A DNA stretch of 64,000 nucleotides, taken from Alicyclobacillus acidocaldarius subsp. acidocaldarius Tc-4-1 (GTDB lineage: Bacteria; Bacillota; Bacilli; Alicyclobacillales; Alicyclobacillaceae). Shown here in pieces: positions 25,118-30,402 of the stretch. The notes under the pieces are model-generated. The model did no database searches. It worked only from the letters and a program-made list of their open reading frames with translations, and had not been told where the DNA came from. Numbering within the stretch: position 1 is the stretch's first letter; every line of letters starts with the position of its first letter. The position numbers were made by a program, and so were the translations under genes. The stretch spans positions 972,765 to 1,036,764 of the forward strand of contig NC_017167.1 in NCBI RefSeq assembly GCF_000219875.1, read 5' to 3'.

Positions 25118-26352
25118 ATGCGGCGTCGACGTTGGGAGTACGAGGATTGGCCGAGCGAGAACAGGCGGTGGGGCATGTGGCTTGCGGGCGGGATCGCGCT
25201 CCTCGCCATCTCCTACATCCTCGGCATCTGGACAGGCGCGGCGCTTACGCGCGGTCGTTCCCAGACGACCGTGGAGTACATCCCTCCTCAGACGGGCAAC
25301 ACCACGAGCACATCCGGTGCGCTCACGCCCATCCCTGGCGTCGAGGACACGACCATCGTGACGCAGATTTACAATCGTGTAAAAACAGCATCTTCACCAT
25401 CACGGCCGTGTCCGGCGGCAAACCGACGTCGAGCGACGCCGAAGAAGATATCGGCACCGGCTTTCTCATCGATCACAATGGCGATCTCCTGACCAACGCA
25501 CACGTCGTGGGTTCAGCCACCACCGTGCAGGTGTCTGGTGACAATCGGCAATTCGTGGGCCGCGTGATCGACGCGGATCAACTCGACGATCTCGCCATTG
25601 TGCGCATCCCTGCGCCGAAGTCGCTGCAGCCGCTGCCGCTTGGGTCGGTGAAATCTCTTCAGCCTGGCAGTCTGGTCATTGCGATTGGGAATCCGTTCGA
25701 GCTCACCTCCAGCGTGAGCTCCGGCATCGTAAGCGGGCTGAACCGGTCGATGTCCGAGTCCAACGGCCACGTCATGAACGGAATGATCCAGACGGACGCG
25801 CCGCTCAACCCGGGAAATTCGGGCGGACCGCTTCTGAACGCGGCCGGACAGGTCGTGGGCATCAACACGCTGATTGAGAGCCCCATCGAAGGATCCATCG
25901 GCATCGGATTTGCCATTCCCATCGACCGCTTTATCCAGTTGGAGCCGGAGTTGCTCTCGGGCAAGCCGATTGCCCACGCGTGGCTCGGCATTGAGGGCAT
26001 GGACATCGACAGCTTGATGCAGCAGGCGCTCCATCTGCCCGTTTCATCGGGCGTGTACGTGACCGAGGTGGCCCAGGGCGGCCCTGCGGCCAAGGCGGGG
26101 TTGCGCGGGGATTCCAACGCGGCGAAGCTCAACAGCCTGAGCCAGTCGGCCAATCCCTACGCCGCATTGAAGGGCAACGGCGACATCATCATCGGGATCG
26201 ACGGCAAGTCGGTGTCGAGCATTGAGCAGTTGACCCAGTACATCAACCAGGACGATCCGGGCCAGACGGTGGTCCTGACGGTGCTGCGCGGTGGGAAGAC
26301 CCTTCATGTGCGCGTGACGCTAGGGACGTGGCCGTCCGGGCAAAATCCGTGA
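25118..26352 (+). pseudogene. HtrA/DegP-type serine protease, frameshifted
   Basis: A membrane-anchored S1C protease of protein quality control. The start at 25118 follows AAGGGGGAG, and an N-terminal helix (LAGGIALLAISYILGIW) precedes a linker. The reading frame breaks at the A5 run 25381-25385. One additional A would join IYNRVK to NSIFTITAVSGG and give 411 residues. Beyond this, the triad histidine (LTNAHVVG), aspartate (DDLAIVRI) and serine (NPGNSGGPL) and a PDZ domain are intact. This is either a sequence error or a real one-base deletion; as written, no active protease would be made. Confidence 0.85.
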
Positions 26353-26388: not shown

Positions 26389-26928
26389 TTACGGTTGAAG
26401 GCGAGCGTTGCGAATGGCCTGCTTGCGCTCCTTGGCGACGTGCGACTGGTGAAACATCTTGAGCAGCGCTCGTTTTTCCAGTCGCGACACGTAGGAGCGG
26501 GAGATGTCGAGCGAGTCGGCCACCTCATTCTGGGTCCACTCGCGCCCGTCGGCGAGGCCAAACCGGAGTTCAATCACCTTGCGCTCGCGCTCGTCGAGGA
26601 CGTCGAGCAATTGGCGCATGGTGTTGAGTTCCATCCGGCGAGACACTTCGTCCTCCGTGGAGTCGCTCTCGGAAAACAGGATATCGCCGATGGTGATCTC
26701 GTTCCCCTCCTTATCCGTCCCGATGGGGCTGTACAGGGAGACGTCCTTGCGCGACTTTCGCTGGGCGCGCAGTTGCATCAGAATCTCGTTTTGGATGCAT
26801 CGCGCCGCGTAGGTCGCGAATTTGGTCCCTTTGGACGGCTGATACGTGTCCACAGCTTTAATCAAGCCGACCGTGCCGATGGAAATCAGGTCATCCTGAT
26901 CGATCCCGGACGTATCAAACTTCTTCAC
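26389..26928 (-). CDS. sigK: sigK, 3' part (sigma-K regions 2-4), split gene
   Basis: Encodes the C-terminal 179 residues of the late mother-cell sporulation sigma factor. The sequence starts VKKFDTSGIDQDDLISIG (region 2), continues through TYAARCIQNEILMQLR and KDVSLYSPIGTDKEGNEI, and ends with the region 4 helix-turn-helix (QNEVADSLDISRSYVSRLEK). It has no start of its own. The matching N-terminal part lies at 29371-29562 on the same strand, separated by a recombinase-bearing insert. Joining the two gives 243 residues, very close to Bacillus SigK. It is therefore silent until the insert is excised. Confidence 0.93.
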   Translation of the reverse strand: MKKFDTSGIDQDDLISIGTVGLIKAVDTYQPSKGTKFATYAARCIQNEILMQLRAQRKSRKDVSLYSPIGTDKEGNEITIGDILFSESDSTEDEVSRRMELNTMRQLLDVLDERERKVIELRFGLADGREWTQNEVADSLDISRSYVSRLEKRALLKMFHQSHVAKERKQAIRNARLQP

Positions 26929-26945
26929 GTCGTCGACATCGCCGC
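26921..26945 (-). other. Left attachment site of the sigK intervening element
   Basis: Left junction, with the predicted 2-bp crossover CG at 26928-26929. The element side begins TCGTCGACATCGCC. Its first bases form an imperfect inverted repeat with the right end (CACGTCGTCGAC here versus CACGTCGCCAAC in the complement of the right end). Confidence 0.6.
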
Positions 26946-26971
26946 GGTTGGGCCATCGTGGAGGCGAGTGT

Positions 26972-27604
26972 GTGCATTTCCAGGAGATCATTCAGCACTA
27001 CGGCTATGCGGGCGTCTTTTTCATCATCTTCGTCGAGGCCATTGGATTTCCGTTTCCGGCTGAGACGACGCTGACACTCGCCGGGATCGAATGGTCCAAG
27101 GGCGTGTTTCATCTGGTTCCTCTTTGGTTGATGGGGTGCCTCGGCAACCTCTTCGGCTCTGCCGTGGCCTTCTTCATCGGCTGGTTTCTGGGACGCCCGG
27201 TCGTGTTGTACTTCGGCAAGTACGTCGGGATCACGGACCAGAAGCTCGACATGGTCAACGAGCGCTTCCAGCGCTACGAGTTGGCCGTGATTTTCATCGC
27301 CAAGTTTATCGCGGGCGTGCGCATCATCGTGCCGTACCTAGCGGGCATCAATCGCATGAATCCCGCGAAGTTTTTCATTGTGAACACCATCGCCGCCGTC
27401 GTGTGGTCGGGCGCCTTCATCATCGCAGGGAAGTACATTGGCGAAGAAGTGAGCCGCTACTGGCCGTTCCTCAAGCATCACCTCTGGCTGGCTGCCCTCC
27501 TCGCCGCCATCCTCGTGGCGCTTTTCATCGCGTTTCGCAGGTGGGAGCGTAAAAAGATGCATGGGTCGGCGCCGAATGCCAAAGGGGACGGTGCCGAGCG
27601 CTGA
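26972..27604 (+). CDS. DedA-family membrane protein carried in the sigK element
   Basis: A 210-residue polytopic membrane protein of the DedA/SNARE-associated family, linked in bacteria to lipid-carrier flipping and membrane homeostasis. The family features FVEAIGFPFPAETTL, GCLGNLFGSAVAFFIGWFLG and FIAGVRIIVPYLAG are present. The GTG at 26972 has GGAGGCG six bases upstream. It begins 43 bases inside the element. The circle excised in the mother cell would take it along, while the germ line keeps it. Confidence 0.88.
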   Translation: MHFQEIIQHYGYAGVFFIIFVEAIGFPFPAETTLTLAGIEWSKGVFHLVPLWLMGCLGNLFGSAVAFFIGWFLGRPVVLYFGKYVGITDQKLDMVNERFQRYELAVIFIAKFIAGVRIIVPYLAGINRMNPAKFFIVNTIAAVVWSGAFIIAGKYIGEEVSRYWPFLKHHLWLAALLAAILVALFIAFRRWERKKMHGSAPNAKGDGAER

Positions 27605-27649
27605 TCTCGCGCTCGAACGGGCCGCTGTCGTAGGACATCTCTCCATCCG

Positions 27650-27656
27650 CATACAT
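27650..27656 (+). promoter_or_regulatory. Possible sigma-E-type -10 element
   Basis: CATACAT matches the start of the sigma-E -10 consensus (CATACAnT) and lies ahead of the small ORF and recombinase. The -35 region is weak. A mother-cell promoter would fit the known control of spoIVCA, but this is a weak inference. Confidence 0.3.
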
Positions 27657-27676
27657 GCGAGTGGGGGGTGTTCTTC

Positions 27677-27832
27677 GTGCAGCGGCCTATTCGCGTGATC
27701 TGGCGTTGGGCAGCAGGTGAGATGACCGAGCCGGATCCTGCTCGACTTGCGCGCCTGTGGGCGCAGACGTGGCTGGCGATGTCCGACACGCTCAGGCATA
27801 CGGGACATTCGACCTCCGGGGGTGGCGCCTGA
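27677..27832 (+). CDS. 51-residue ORF overlapping the recombinase start
   Basis: A GTG start eight bases after a G6 run encodes a 51-residue protein (MQRPIRVIWRWAAGEMTEPD...). Its TGA overlaps the recombinase ATG as TGATG, so the two are probably translationally coupled. The N-terminus is basic and aromatic, the rest helical. A small recombination directionality factor is one possibility, because such a factor is encoded in the C. difficile skin element. No similarity could be tested. Confidence 0.5.
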   Translation: MQRPIRVIWRWAAGEMTEPDPARLARLWAQTWLAMSDTLRHTGHSTSGGGA

Positions 27833-29340
27833 TGTGGACCGCCATCTACACGCGCGTGTCGACCGAACACCAGGCGCAGGCTGGGCATGGGCTTGAGGTC
27901 CAGCGGGAGGCGTGCGTGCAGTACGCCCTGTCCCTTGGGGTGGCTCCGCGCGACATCCGCCTCTACGAGGAAGCGGGTGGATCGGGCGAGGACATGGACC
28001 GACCGGAGCTGATGCGACTCCTCGACGACGTGCGGCGCGGGCTTGTCGATCGCGTCGTCGTGAAACATCCCGACCGCCTGTCGCGCAACGTGGCCGACAA
28101 GGCGATTGTGGTGCGGGAGTTATCCGCGTGCGGTGTGAAGCTCCACTTCGTCGATGTGCCGAACTGGGATGAGTCCGACGAAGCGGTGCTTCTCTTCCAC
28201 GTCATCTCGAGCATCGCCGAGTATGAACTCCGGCAAATTCGGCGGCGCACGCTGGCGGGAAAACTGAAGGCGGTTCGGGGCGGCCGAGTGATGCCATCCG
28301 GGGTGGATCCGTACGGCTATCGCTACGAGGACGGGCGGTACGTCGTGGTACCCGAGGAGGCCGAAGTCGTCCGGCTCATCTATCAATGGTACGGGATCGA
28401 CGGCCTGAGCCTTCGGGCCATCGCCGAGCGGCTCGAGGCCATGGGGGTGCCGACGAAGACGCGCCAGGCGGCGCGCTGGCACCACAGCACGGTGGCGAGG
28501 ATCCTCGAAAACCCTGTATATCAAGGTACTTGGTATTACAACCGCAGGCGCACGTCCAAACGGCACGGCGTGAGAGGCGCCCGCCGCGGCCGAGGCCGGC
28601 AGGTCGTGGCAGTGCGGGATCCAAGCGAATGGATTGCCGTGTCGGTACCGGCCGTAGTCAGTCCGGAGCTCGCGCGCTCGGTCGAGCTGCGCAAGCAGGG
28701 CGGTCCGCGAGGCGGTTCAACGTCGATGCACACGTTTTTATCGGGCAAACTCGTGTGCGCGCACTGTCAACGCGCATGGCGGCACGAGGCATGTCGGACG
28801 GCAGGCGGGATCGTGCGCAAGTTTCGGCGCCCGCCGGGGGAGCGAGGGACCGACCCTTGCGCGTATGGCTGTGCGCGGGTACCCGCAGACGAGATTGAGC
28901 AGGCGGTGTGGCGCGAGCTGGTGCGGCGCATGCGCGCTTGGATCACGAAGGAGGACATCACGGCTGGCGCGAGCCCGGGTGACCCGCTGATGGAGGACGT
29001 GGCGCGCCTCCGCAGAGAGATGCGCGCCGCGGCAGAGCGGCGGCATCGCGCGAGGGAGTTATATCTGCGTGGTTATCTGGACCGGAGCGAGGCCCTGCGC
29101 GCGATGGCGGAGGAGGCTCGGCGCCTGCGAGAGGGGCGCGCCGAGGCCTGTCGGATGTGCCATGCGCGGCGACATCGGTTGGAGGCGCGGGAGGCGCTCT
29201 GGGCGGCGCTTGAAACGCACGAAGGTGTCGAGTTGCGGAGGTTGTGGCTCGAGGCGGCGGTGTCACGCGTCGAGATCGACGCCTCGGGCGGCGAGATTGT
29301 CCTCACGCTAGTCGCCCGGATGAGTGATGATTCGGGATGA
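27832..29340 (+). CDS. Large serine recombinase, SpoIVCA-like
   Basis: A site-specific recombinase of 502 residues, expected to excise the element from sigK. The N-terminal resolvase domain has AIYTRVSTEHQAQAG with the catalytic serine, DRPELMRLLDDV, and the conserved DRLSRN. A recombinase domain follows (KTRQAARWHHSTVARILENP). A zinc-ribbon segment (FLSGKLVCAHCQRAW ... CAYGC) and a C-terminal coiled coil complete the usual layout. It lies inside the element in opposite orientation to sigK. The best functional analogue is SpoIVCA. Confidence 0.92.
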   Translation: MWTAIYTRVSTEHQAQAGHGLEVQREACVQYALSLGVAPRDIRLYEEAGGSGEDMDRPELMRLLDDVRRGLVDRVVVKHPDRLSRNVADKAIVVRELSACGVKLHFVDVPNWDESDEAVLLFHVISSIAEYELRQIRRRTLAGKLKAVRGGRVMPSGVDPYGYRYEDGRYVVVPEEAEVVRLIYQWYGIDGLSLRAIAERLEAMGVPTKTRQAARWHHSTVARILENPVYQGTWYYNRRRTSKRHGVRGARRGRGRQVVAVRDPSEWIAVSVPAVVSPELARSVELRKQGGPRGGSTSMHTFLSGKLVCAHCQRAWRHEACRTAGGIVRKFRRPPGERGTDPCAYGCARVPADEIEQAVWRELVRRMRAWITKEDITAGASPGDPLMEDVARLRREMRAAAERRHRARELYLRGYLDRSEALRAMAEEARRLREGRAEACRMCHARRHRLEAREALWAALETHEGVELRRLWLEAAVSRVEIDASGGEIVLTLVARMSDDSG

Positions 29341-29352
29341 TTCGGGTCTCGG

Positions 29353-29380
29353 CGTCGACGACACGTTGGCGACGTGAGCG
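29353..29380 (-). other. Right attachment site of the sigK intervening element
   Basis: Right junction, with the predicted crossover CG at 29370-29371. A 5-base direct repeat CACGT also occurs at both ends (29362-29366 and 26926-26930). Recombination there would be in frame too, but would add two residues inside a conserved sigma-factor helix. Confidence 0.6.
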
Positions 29381-29562
29381 ACCAGGCGGAGGTTGTGCTC
29401 GACGAGGATATCGTGCGCCTGTTTGTCCCGATATTTTCGCCAGAGTTCAAAGTACTTGGCCTCGTCCTCCTTGGACAACGGCTGCGGAAATGACTGGCTG
29501 GCAAAGCTCGACGCCAGCACAAAGTCGTCGGCCGATCCGGAGAGCAGGGAATGCTTGAACAA
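29371..29562 (-). CDS. sigK: sigK, 5' part (pro-sequence and region 1.2/2.1), split gene
   Basis: Encodes residues 1-64 of pro-sigma-K: a hydrophobic pro-region (DDFVLASSFASQ), then SFPQPLSKEDE and HNLRLVAHV, matching the start of Bacillus SigK. As sequenced, the frame runs into the element and stops at 29308, giving an 84-residue truncated product. The TTG start at 29562 has GGAGGTGAG in front. That site overlaps the stop of the upstream SGNH hydrolase gene, so the two are likely cotranscribed. The pro-sequence implies SpoIVFB-type processing (family knowledge). Confidence 0.9.
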
Positions 29563-29569
29563 CGGGGAC

Positions 29570-30271
29570 TCACCTCCGACTGTGCCAAACGCCCGTGCTT
29601 CCTAGCCTATGTCGCATGGCCGCAAGGGGTGAGATGTACGCGGCCAGTCCAAGCCCAATCACCTGATGGCCGAGATCGTTCGGATGCACCGGCGCGCGGC
29701 CGCCCGCGAGGACGTCGTCGAGGCGGCCTGTGCGGTATCCCGCGATGAGGAGCGGCTCTCGGCCTGCGAACCACGCATCCACCGGAGCGATGAAGGCGCC
29801 CAAGCGGGCGCCCACGCGGGTCACAACGCCGTTCAAGCCTCGAATGGCGGACGCGGCGAGAGGCGAGTGCGGAAAGGGATTGTACAGCGTGCACAACACG
29901 AGCGGCACGCCGTGCCAGCGGCAGGAGGCCGCGATGAAGGCGAGATCGCCTGCATAGCGCTGGTAAGCTGCGCGAAGCTGGCGGTGCAGGTGGCCTTCGG
30001 AGGGAGCGGTGACGGCCGCCTGGACGAGATCGTCCCCGCCAACCAGGACGGCGGCTACGTCTGCGCTCGCAAGTGCCTGTTTGTCCGCCTCCACGGAAGC
30101 CGCGAGATCCGCACTTGTCCATCCAGGCTGCGCGACGACGCGCGTTTCCACCGGCGCGCGCACCTCGGCCGCAAGCGCACGCGCTGCCACCTGGGGATAG
30201 GCGCGGGTAGGCCGAGACGCGCGCTCCCCGTACGCGATGGAGTCGCCCAAATGGAGCACGATCACGCTCAT
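29570..30271 (-). CDS. SGNH/GDSL-type hydrolase
   Basis: A 233-residue esterase/lipase-type hydrolase of the SGNH family. The nucleophile block is LHLGDSIAYG at the N-terminus, GGDD is block III-like, and the catalytic Asp/His pair is in HPNDLGHQVIG. There is no signal peptide, so it is probably cytoplasmic. The ATG at 30271 follows AGGGAG. Its stop codon lies in the Shine-Dalgarno of sigK, which suggests expression with sigK and a possible role in sporulation (inference). Confidence 0.82.
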   Translation of the reverse strand: MSVIVLHLGDSIAYGERASRPTRAYPQVAARALAAEVRAPVETRVVAQPGWTSADLAASVEADKQALASADVAAVLVGGDDLVQAAVTAPSEGHLHRQLRAAYQRYAGDLAFIAASCRWHGVPLVLCTLYNPFPHSPLAASAIRGLNGVVTRVGARLGAFIAPVDAWFAGREPLLIAGYRTGRLDDVLAGGRAPVHPNDLGHQVIGLGLAAYISPLAAMRHRLGSTGVWHSRR

Positions 30272-30402
30272 CCACTCCCTGGCCAGCGCCCGCAAGCGAA
30301 AGGGGCGTCGGCATACAATGAACCATCGCAACTTCATTCCATGCTGACGCCGCGCAAAACGAGTGGGTCTTTGCCACATTTGGTGCGTGAGGAGAGGAGA
30401 AC

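What the first reader, a model, noticed from the sequence alone, without database searches (positions are those of the whole stretch)
26389..29562. sigK is split by a minimal skin-type element (about 2.44 kb)
The 5' part of sigK (29371-29562) and 3' part (26389-26928) are on the minus strand, separated by an insert encoding a SpoIVCA-like serine recombinase, a small ORF and a DedA protein. Rejoining gives an uninterrupted 243-residue pro-sigma-K with the conserved HNLRLVAHVVKKFD. The known sigK skin elements of Bacillus subtilis and Clostridioides difficile are prophage-sized; this one carries little more than the recombinase. If real, spore formation depends on developmentally timed excision by a stripped-down system that would be simple to study.
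Basis: partly seen in the sequence, partly recalled or inferred. Interest (0 to 1): 0.95.

Follow-up and report, generated by a model that had tools for sequence, protein, structure and literature searches.

The report
Tiny excisable insert splitting second sigK
In these heat- and acid-loving spore formers a second copy of the late sporulation sigma-factor gene is cut in two by a 2.4-kb insert that carries its own DNA-cutting enzyme, and comparison with relatives suggests the insert is removed cleanly when spores form; it is far smaller than the similar inserts described in the papers seen.

Summary
The split gene is real. Between window 26925 and 29367 (minus strand) a 2,442-bp element carries a DedA-family gene, a small ORF and an intact large serine recombinase. 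Rejoining through a shared AA dinucleotide restores a 243-aa SigK that passes TIGR02846.

The interpretation needs correcting. A second, intact sigK ("K1") lies 1.03 Mb away and groups with canonical SigK. The window gene ("K2") belongs to an ancient paralogue clade.

Fourteen of 15 genus genomes carry the element at the same codon; the 15th breaks its contigs exactly there and lacks the element. Main recombinase groupings match the host's. Both gene halves and the recombinase are under purifying selection. GAC-N12-GCATA stands upstream of every recombinase, CATAGGCTA upstream of K2. Four genomes carry another element in K2; one of these has K1 cut by the 105-kb MMB025 prophage too.

Best explanation: a vertically inherited, phage-free skin-type element excised in the mother cell to switch on a second sigma-K. 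Excision itself is not shown. Novelty: new variant of a known kind. A similar 2.8-kb element splits a murA gene in most of the genus.

The parts
29368..29562 (-). 5' part of sigK2 (K2), TTG start, up to codon GCC (65 codons)
   Evidence: NCBIfam SigK models match within residues 13-70
29603..29631 (-). sigma-K-type promoter-like site of K2: CACC-N16-CATAGGCTA, inside the 3' end of the upstream SGNH-type gene
   Evidence: CACC and CATAGGCTA in 15 of 15 genus genomes; 1 match in the window, 0.03 expected
29366..29367 (-). attL core dinucleotide AA, flanked on the element side by arm CGTGTCGTCGAC
26924..29367 (+). the intervening element (2,442 bp core to core; the range includes both core copies)
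27832..29340 (+). large serine recombinase, 502 aa (Resolvase PF00239, Recombinase PF07508, Zn ribbon PF13408); Y6-x-R8-V9-S10 invariant in the 12 of 14 sequences aligned; start overlaps the small-ORF stop (TGATG)
   Evidence: nearest solved sequence YokA of SPbeta
27668..27832 (+). small ORF, 54 aa (RPIRV motif): candidate recombination directionality factor, weakly conserved
   Evidence: motif in 14 of 14, usual start codon in 12 of 14, dN/dS 0.3-0.7; no family match for the 3 small ORFs searched
27633..27653 (+). mother-cell promoter-like block GGACA-N11-GCATA upstream of small ORF and recombinase
   Evidence: GAC-N12-GCATA at the same spacing in 14 of 14, GGACA in 12 of 14; 1 match in the window, 0.18 expected
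26972..27604 (+). DedA-family (VTT domain) membrane protein, about 210 aa, carried in 14 of 14 complete elements
   Evidence: dN/dS 0.03-0.13
26924..26925 (-). attR core dinucleotide AA, flanked on the element side by arm GTCGACGACGTG
26389..26925 (-). 3' part of sigK2, from AAG AAG (KKFD) to stop; regions 2 and 4, with the ISRSYVS motif
25132..26352 (+). flanking HtrA-type protease (trypsin + PDZ), conserved neighbour that marks the locus in relatives
29570..30379 (-). flanking SGNH-hydrolase-like gene upstream of K2 (name recalled, not searched)
   Evidence: conserved neighbour in relatives

Best explanation
The window holds a second, paralogous sigma-K gene (K2) split by a 2,442-bp, phage-free, skin-type element that entered an ancestor of the genus and has been inherited vertically since. 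Proposed working: in the mother cell a sigma-E/SpoIIID-type promoter inside the element switches on the small ORF and the recombinase, alongside the canonical sigK (K1). The recombinase joins attL and attR at the AA dinucleotide, releases a circle carrying dedA and its own gene, and restores K2 without a scar. Sigma-K1 then transcribes K2 from a sigma-K-type promoter, giving a second late mother-cell sigma factor. Shown by sequence: the split, in-frame rejoining, paralogy, vertical inheritance, selection, promoter-like footprints. Inferred: excision, its timing, the role of the small ORF as directionality factor, the order K1 then K2, and what K2 does.
For: In-frame rejoining at one AA core in 14 of 14 complete loci, giving the HVAKKFD found in 16 of 16 uninterrupted relatives examined. 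Rejoined protein 305.8 bits against the 298.65 cut-off of TIGR02846. Both K2 halves at dN/dS 0-0.11 within clades, recombinase 0.11-0.27, DedA 0.03-0.13. Main recombinase groupings match those of K1. attP arms pair at 14.6 of 22 positions on average, against 5.7 for random stretches. Footprints GAC-N12-GCATA before the recombinase in 14 of 14, and CACC with CATAGGCTA before K2 in 15 of 15 (chance). SpoIVCA of B. subtilis is under sigma-E and SpoIIID (PMC517825 passages; PMC5025042 passages). The K2 proteins looked at (3) keep the ISRSYVS arginine of SigK where SigE has glutamine (the arginine/glutamine rule is in a passage of PMC517825). G009, placed inside the A. acidocaldarius group by K2 and K1 trees (support 0.75-0.93), has contigs that abut exactly at the junction and no element in the held contigs.
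Against: No excised product, circle or transcript could be examined. An intact K1 exists in this genome, so dependence of sporulation on the excision is unproven. The small ORF is weakly constrained and lacks a usual start codon in 2 of 14 elements. Attachment arms from different clades pair almost as well (13.0 of 22) as cognate arms (14.6), so co-variation adds little. GGACA is altered in 2 of 14 (G001, G005), and the SpoIIID consensus WWRRACARNY is recalled; the paper shows it only as a figure. Branch order differs in detail between recombinase, DedA and K1 trees (G005; order inside the A. acidocaldarius group). The G009 contig break could be an assembly fault; its murA break does not abut cleanly.
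Confidence: 0.8

Rival explanations
1. K2 is a decaying paralogue killed by a mobile element; K1 does all the sigma-K work and the element is never programmed to leave.
For: K1 is intact in 38 of 41 family genomes by the searches used, so K2 may be dispensable. The K2 pro-sequence of the A. acidocaldarius group has lost its hydrophobic look.
Against: Both K2 halves evolve at dN/dS 0-0.11 across species after the split. The frame across the junction and the recombinase are intact in 14 of 14. A pseudogene of genus age would have decayed.
Confidence: 0.06
2. An ordinary integrative element (integrase plus cargo) that happens to sit in K2; excision is sporadic, not developmental, as for a mobile island.
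For: The recombinase matches phage integrases (phrog_95). In the phage collection the best-placed match is the integrase of Alicyclobacillus phage MMB025 at 32%. A cargo gene is carried.
Against: Descent through the whole genus with matching main groupings, no mobilisation genes seen among its ORFs, a mother-cell-type promoter footprint before the recombinase, and a host gene under selection that needs excision.
Confidence: 0.09
3. The two halves work unjoined: the 3' ORF has its own start (200 aa) and may be translated as a truncated sigma factor, or the halves join by RNA or protein means.
For: The 3' ORF has an in-frame ATG at 26991.
Against: The 5' part is also strongly constrained, relatives without the element encode one continuous protein, and the recombinase is kept.
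Confidence: 0.03

Closest known systems
skin element of Bacillus subtilis sigK (SpoIVCA)
   Same: Large serine recombinase inside a split sigK; short core; sigma-E/SpoIIID-type control suggested here by footprints.
   Different: 2.4 kb instead of 48 kb (size from a passage of PMC517825); no phage structural genes; sits in a paralogue of sigK; inserted at codon 65/66 (HVA|KKFD), not at the ENEI-type site that I recall for skin and that one search shows for the prophage in K1 of G012; in 14 of 15 genomes of a genus.
skin element of Clostridioides difficile (CD1231/CD1234)
   Same: Recombinase plus a small directionality factor (here only a candidate).
   Different: That element has 19 genes and a constitutively expressed recombinase timed by the RDF (PMC5025042 passages); here the promoter-like block precedes small ORF and recombinase together.
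gin element in gerE of Bacillus cereus ATCC10987
   Same: Non-phage element, AA cleavage site proposed, small extra factor.
   Different: 28.6 kb with three recombinase genes (PMC5595907 abstract, introduction and discussion).
Alicyclobacillus phage MMB025 in sigK of A. acidoterrestris DSM 3922
   Same: Serine integrase, sigK interruption, same genus.
   Different: 105-kb phage in the other sigK (K1) at the ENEI site (PMC13141910 passages; G012; end of the G012 insert 100% identical to MMB025 over 2,502 bp); its integrase is only 32% identical to the window recombinase.
Laboratory-minimised SPbeta (SPmini: sprA + sprB)
   Same: Shows that a recombinase plus a small RDF suffices for sporulation-timed excision (PMC4191935 passages); YokA, which I recall as SprA, is the closest solved sequence.
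   Different: Engineered, in spsM; here a natural element of similar economy.

Membership tests
SigK (TIGR02846 equivalog) | Rejoined protein over the curated cut-off | tested here: met
   305.8 bits against 298.65; separate pieces fall below
Orthologue of canonical sigK | Groups with SigK of other Bacilli in a tree | tested here: not met
   K2 is a separate clade (30 of 30 family sequences, support 1.0); K1 groups with SigK of G055, G057, G059, G060 in a clade of 50, support 0.996 (3 of 93 sequences dropped for lacking the trimming motif)
Sporulation gene-intervening element (skin type) | Interrupts a sporulation gene; removal restores the frame | tested here: met
   14 of 14 complete loci; that K2 acts in sporulation rests on family membership
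Sporulation gene-intervening element (skin type) | Encodes an intact large serine recombinase | tested here: met
Sporulation gene-intervening element (skin type) | att sites with a shared short core and symmetric arms | tested here: met
   AA core; arms 12-17 of 22 paired, random mean 5.7
Sporulation gene-intervening element (skin type) | Precise excision during sporulation | not testable with these tools
   Only indirect: G009 contig pair
Sporulation gene-intervening element (skin type) | Recombinase or RDF under mother-cell control | tested here: inconclusive
   Conserved footprints only
Sporulation gene-intervening element (skin type) | Recombination directionality factor | tested here: inconclusive
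   Small ORF motif in 14 of 14, usual start in 12 of 14, weak constraint, no family match for 3 searched
Prophage-like skin element | Phage-derived structural genes | tested here: not met
   Only DedA, small ORF and recombinase

The most novel reading that the evidence does not exclude
Alicyclobacillus has domesticated very small recombinase elements as heritable DNA introns: a 2.4-kb dedA element in a second sigma-K gene and a 2.8-kb ypdA element in a murA gene, each keeping one household gene plus its own recombinase. Spore formation would then be assembled by several programmed excisions, up to three in one species' two sigK genes, and a previously undescribed late sigma factor (K2), transcribed by sigma-K1, would extend the mother-cell cascade by one step.
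Probability: 0.5. Interest if true: 0.88.

Novelty: new variant of a known kind. Interest (0 to 1): 0.74.

Why it matters
It is a natural skin-type element reduced to about the least that laboratory work says is needed, so recombinase, directionality and timing can be studied in 2.4 kb. It runs through a genus and its host gene is under selection, which bears on the open question whether such elements are parasites or regulators. It also points to a second sigma-K shared across a family and probably an order, and makes a three-step test possible (K1, excision, K2) in strains whose K1 is intact.

Tried and rejected
Rejected the HVVKKFD junction and my own first guess of an ACGTG core (HVANVKKFD): relatives show HVAKKFD and an AA core. 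Rejected 'no other sigK'. Co-variation of attachment arms was tested with a between-clade control and found weak. The small ORF gave no family match (3 of 14 searched) and a modest single-helix model (mean pLDDT 75, pTM 0.38), so no fold search was made. The viral-contig scan gave only 4 distant relatives, 26-33%. A genome-contig scan named one relative, A. mali NBRC 102425. Papers: 9 searches; 7 papers hold both Alicyclobacillus and sigK. I saw passages of two of those seven (PMC13141910, PMC3533761) and only listings of the rest; the split sigK in the first is that of MMB025. Most subscription papers are not held, so absence from print is not claimed. Species names other than A. mali are inferred or recalled; G012 as A. 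acidoterrestris rests on its MMB025 insert.
Full report
Observation. The minus strand of the window carries both halves of a SigK gene on either side of an insert with a DedA-family gene, a small ORF and a serine recombinase. The left end reads GTCGCC-AA-CGTG and the right end GACGTG-AA-GAAG; joining at AA gives HVAKKFD. The element is 2,442 bp long, core to core.

Not the only sigK. A search of the complete 3.12-Mb genome with TIGR02846 found an intact sigK at 2,028,802-2,029,473, 323 bits against a cut-off of 298.65. I call it K1 and the window gene K2. In a tree of 90 proteins (3 of 93 dropped because the trimming motif was absent) K1 falls in a clade of 50 with SigK of four other Bacilli (support 0.996). 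K2 is its own clade, 30 of 30 family sequences, support 1.0, joined by six paralogues of the neighbouring family (support 0.805). The rejoined K2 still passes TIGR02846 (305.8 bits).

Distribution. All 15 genus genomes held were examined. Fourteen have K2 split at this codon by a 2,439-2,643-bp element with recombinase and DedA. The fifteenth, G009, ends one contig at ...CACGTCG and starts another at CCAAGAAG..., which abut exactly at the junction; recombinase and DedA are missing from its held contigs, although a contig as short as 697 bp is held. In the K2 and K1 trees G009 falls among element carriers, so precise loss, or a mixture of excised and unexcised DNA, is the likely cause; reads would decide. 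Over the 41 family genomes K2 is clearly split in 19 (14 here; also G015, G020, G021, G029, G033), intact in 19, and unresolved in 3 (G009; G028, contig end; G064, only the left piece). K1 is intact in 38, split in 2 (G012, G035) and seen only as a contig-end fragment in 1 (G064, 72% complete); K1 of G061-G063 was assigned by identity, not by tree.

More than one element per gene. In G004, G007, G008 and G012, K2 carries a second element of 4.4-5.3 kb at GNE|IT, with a different serine recombinase and either a chemotaxis-receptor-like gene or a transporter-like gene and a peptidoglycan-binding-like gene (these cargo names are my reading, not searched). G012 in addition has K1 cut by 105 kb at ENE|IL. 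The end of that insert is 100% identical to phage MMB025 over 2,502 bp, the prophage described for A. acidoterrestris (PMC13141910, passages). G012 thus has no uninterrupted sigK.

Selection and descent. dN/dS was taken for pairs inside three clades, G001 and G003 being left out and saturated pairs dropped: K2 5' part 0-0.11, 3' part 0-0.04; recombinase 0.11-0.27, DedA 0.03-0.13, small ORF 0.3-0.7. The main recombinase groupings match those of K1; the order inside the A. acidocaldarius group, and the place of G005 in the DedA tree, differ (G012 is not in the K1 tree). The gene is kept, and its full length can only be read if the element leaves.

Control footprints. Between DedA and the small ORF an otherwise divergent stretch keeps GAC-N12-GCATA at identical spacing in 14 of 14 elements, and GGACA in 12 of 14; this resembles a SpoIIID box (consensus recalled) before a sigma-E/K -10. 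Upstream of K2, CACC-N16-CATAGGCTA stands in the window gene, and CACC and CATAGGCTA in 15 of 15, in line with a sigma-K promoter (5-nt -35, 10-nt -10, 14-16 nt gap in PMC517825, passages). Upstream of K1, TGTCC and GCATA are kept in 14 of 14 genomes aligned (G009 not among them). Chance expectations for the two window patterns were 0.18 and 0.03. K2 keeps the arginine of SigK in ISRSYVS, where SigE has glutamine (three K2 and one SigE sequence looked at).

Recombinase. Large serine recombinase with intact catalytic motif; nearest solved sequence YokA of SPbeta. In the phage collection no match covers 80% of it; MMB025 integrase is listed first at 32%. Arms around the AA core pair at 12-17 of 22 positions (random mean 5.7), but arms of other clades pair nearly as well, 13.0 on average, so this supports attachment-site structure and not co-evolution. 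The small ORF (about 51-73 aa; SprB has 58 aa, PMC4191935 passages) is a candidate directionality factor only.

Mechanism and standing. Shown: split, in-frame repair at one dinucleotide, paralogy, genus-wide descent, selection, footprints. Inferred: excision, mother-cell timing, circle, RDF role, K1 then K2. Known elements of this kind in the papers seen are far larger (48 kb in B. subtilis, 28.6 kb for gin, 19 genes in C. difficile, 105 kb for MMB025). I rate it a new variant of a known kind.

A second case. In 10 of 15 genus genomes the murA gene upstream of sigE is split; 5 of 15 have it whole, and all 15 have another full-length murA. In the 9 split loci that are not at contig ends the gap holds ypdA and a serine recombinase. 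The gap is about 2.8-2.9 kb in 7 of these 9, 5.8 kb in G011, which has two tandem copies of the element (as expected if circles re-integrate), and 7.0 kb in G005. The tenth, G009, breaks its contigs there too, though not abutting cleanly.

Noticed in passing
L225 (G000:C1:1193889-1197967): murA in the murG-murB-divIB cluster is split after KMR by an element with ypdA (TIGR04018) and a large serine recombinase; same split in 10 of 15 genus genomes (G009 only at contig ends), intact there in 5, and a second full-length murA exists in all 15.
   Followed up: partly
L236 (G011:C6:77000-86000): Two tandem copies of the murA element, with a junction that looks like its circle site.
   Followed up: no
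L228/L229 and L120/L073 (G009): Contigs end at both the murA and the sigK2 junctions, and the sigK2 element and the murA-element recombinase are not found in the held assembly; possible trace of excision in the sequenced DNA.
   Followed up: partly
L079-L082 (G004, G008, G012, G007): A second element of 4.4-5.3 kb in sigK2 at GNE|IT with its own recombinase; cargo differs between species pairs.
   Followed up: partly
L136, L137 (G012) and L223, L224 (G035): Canonical sigK (K1) is split at the ENEI site in two genomes, by the 105-kb MMB025 prophage in G012 and across contigs in G035.
   Followed up: partly
L220-L222 (G057:C1:1542000-1628000): An intact canonical sigK is followed by at least five partial 3' copies of sigK; four of them were seen to start at KKFD, the same codon as the window's insertion site.
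   Followed up: partly
L210/L211 (G028): Two contigs overlap and the left one ends at the ENEI site of K2; unresolved whether an element is present.
   Followed up: no
window 29470-29562: The K2 pro-sequence of the A. acidocaldarius group (GSADDFVLASSF) has lost the hydrophobic stretch seen in K1 and in other K2 proteins.
   Followed up: no
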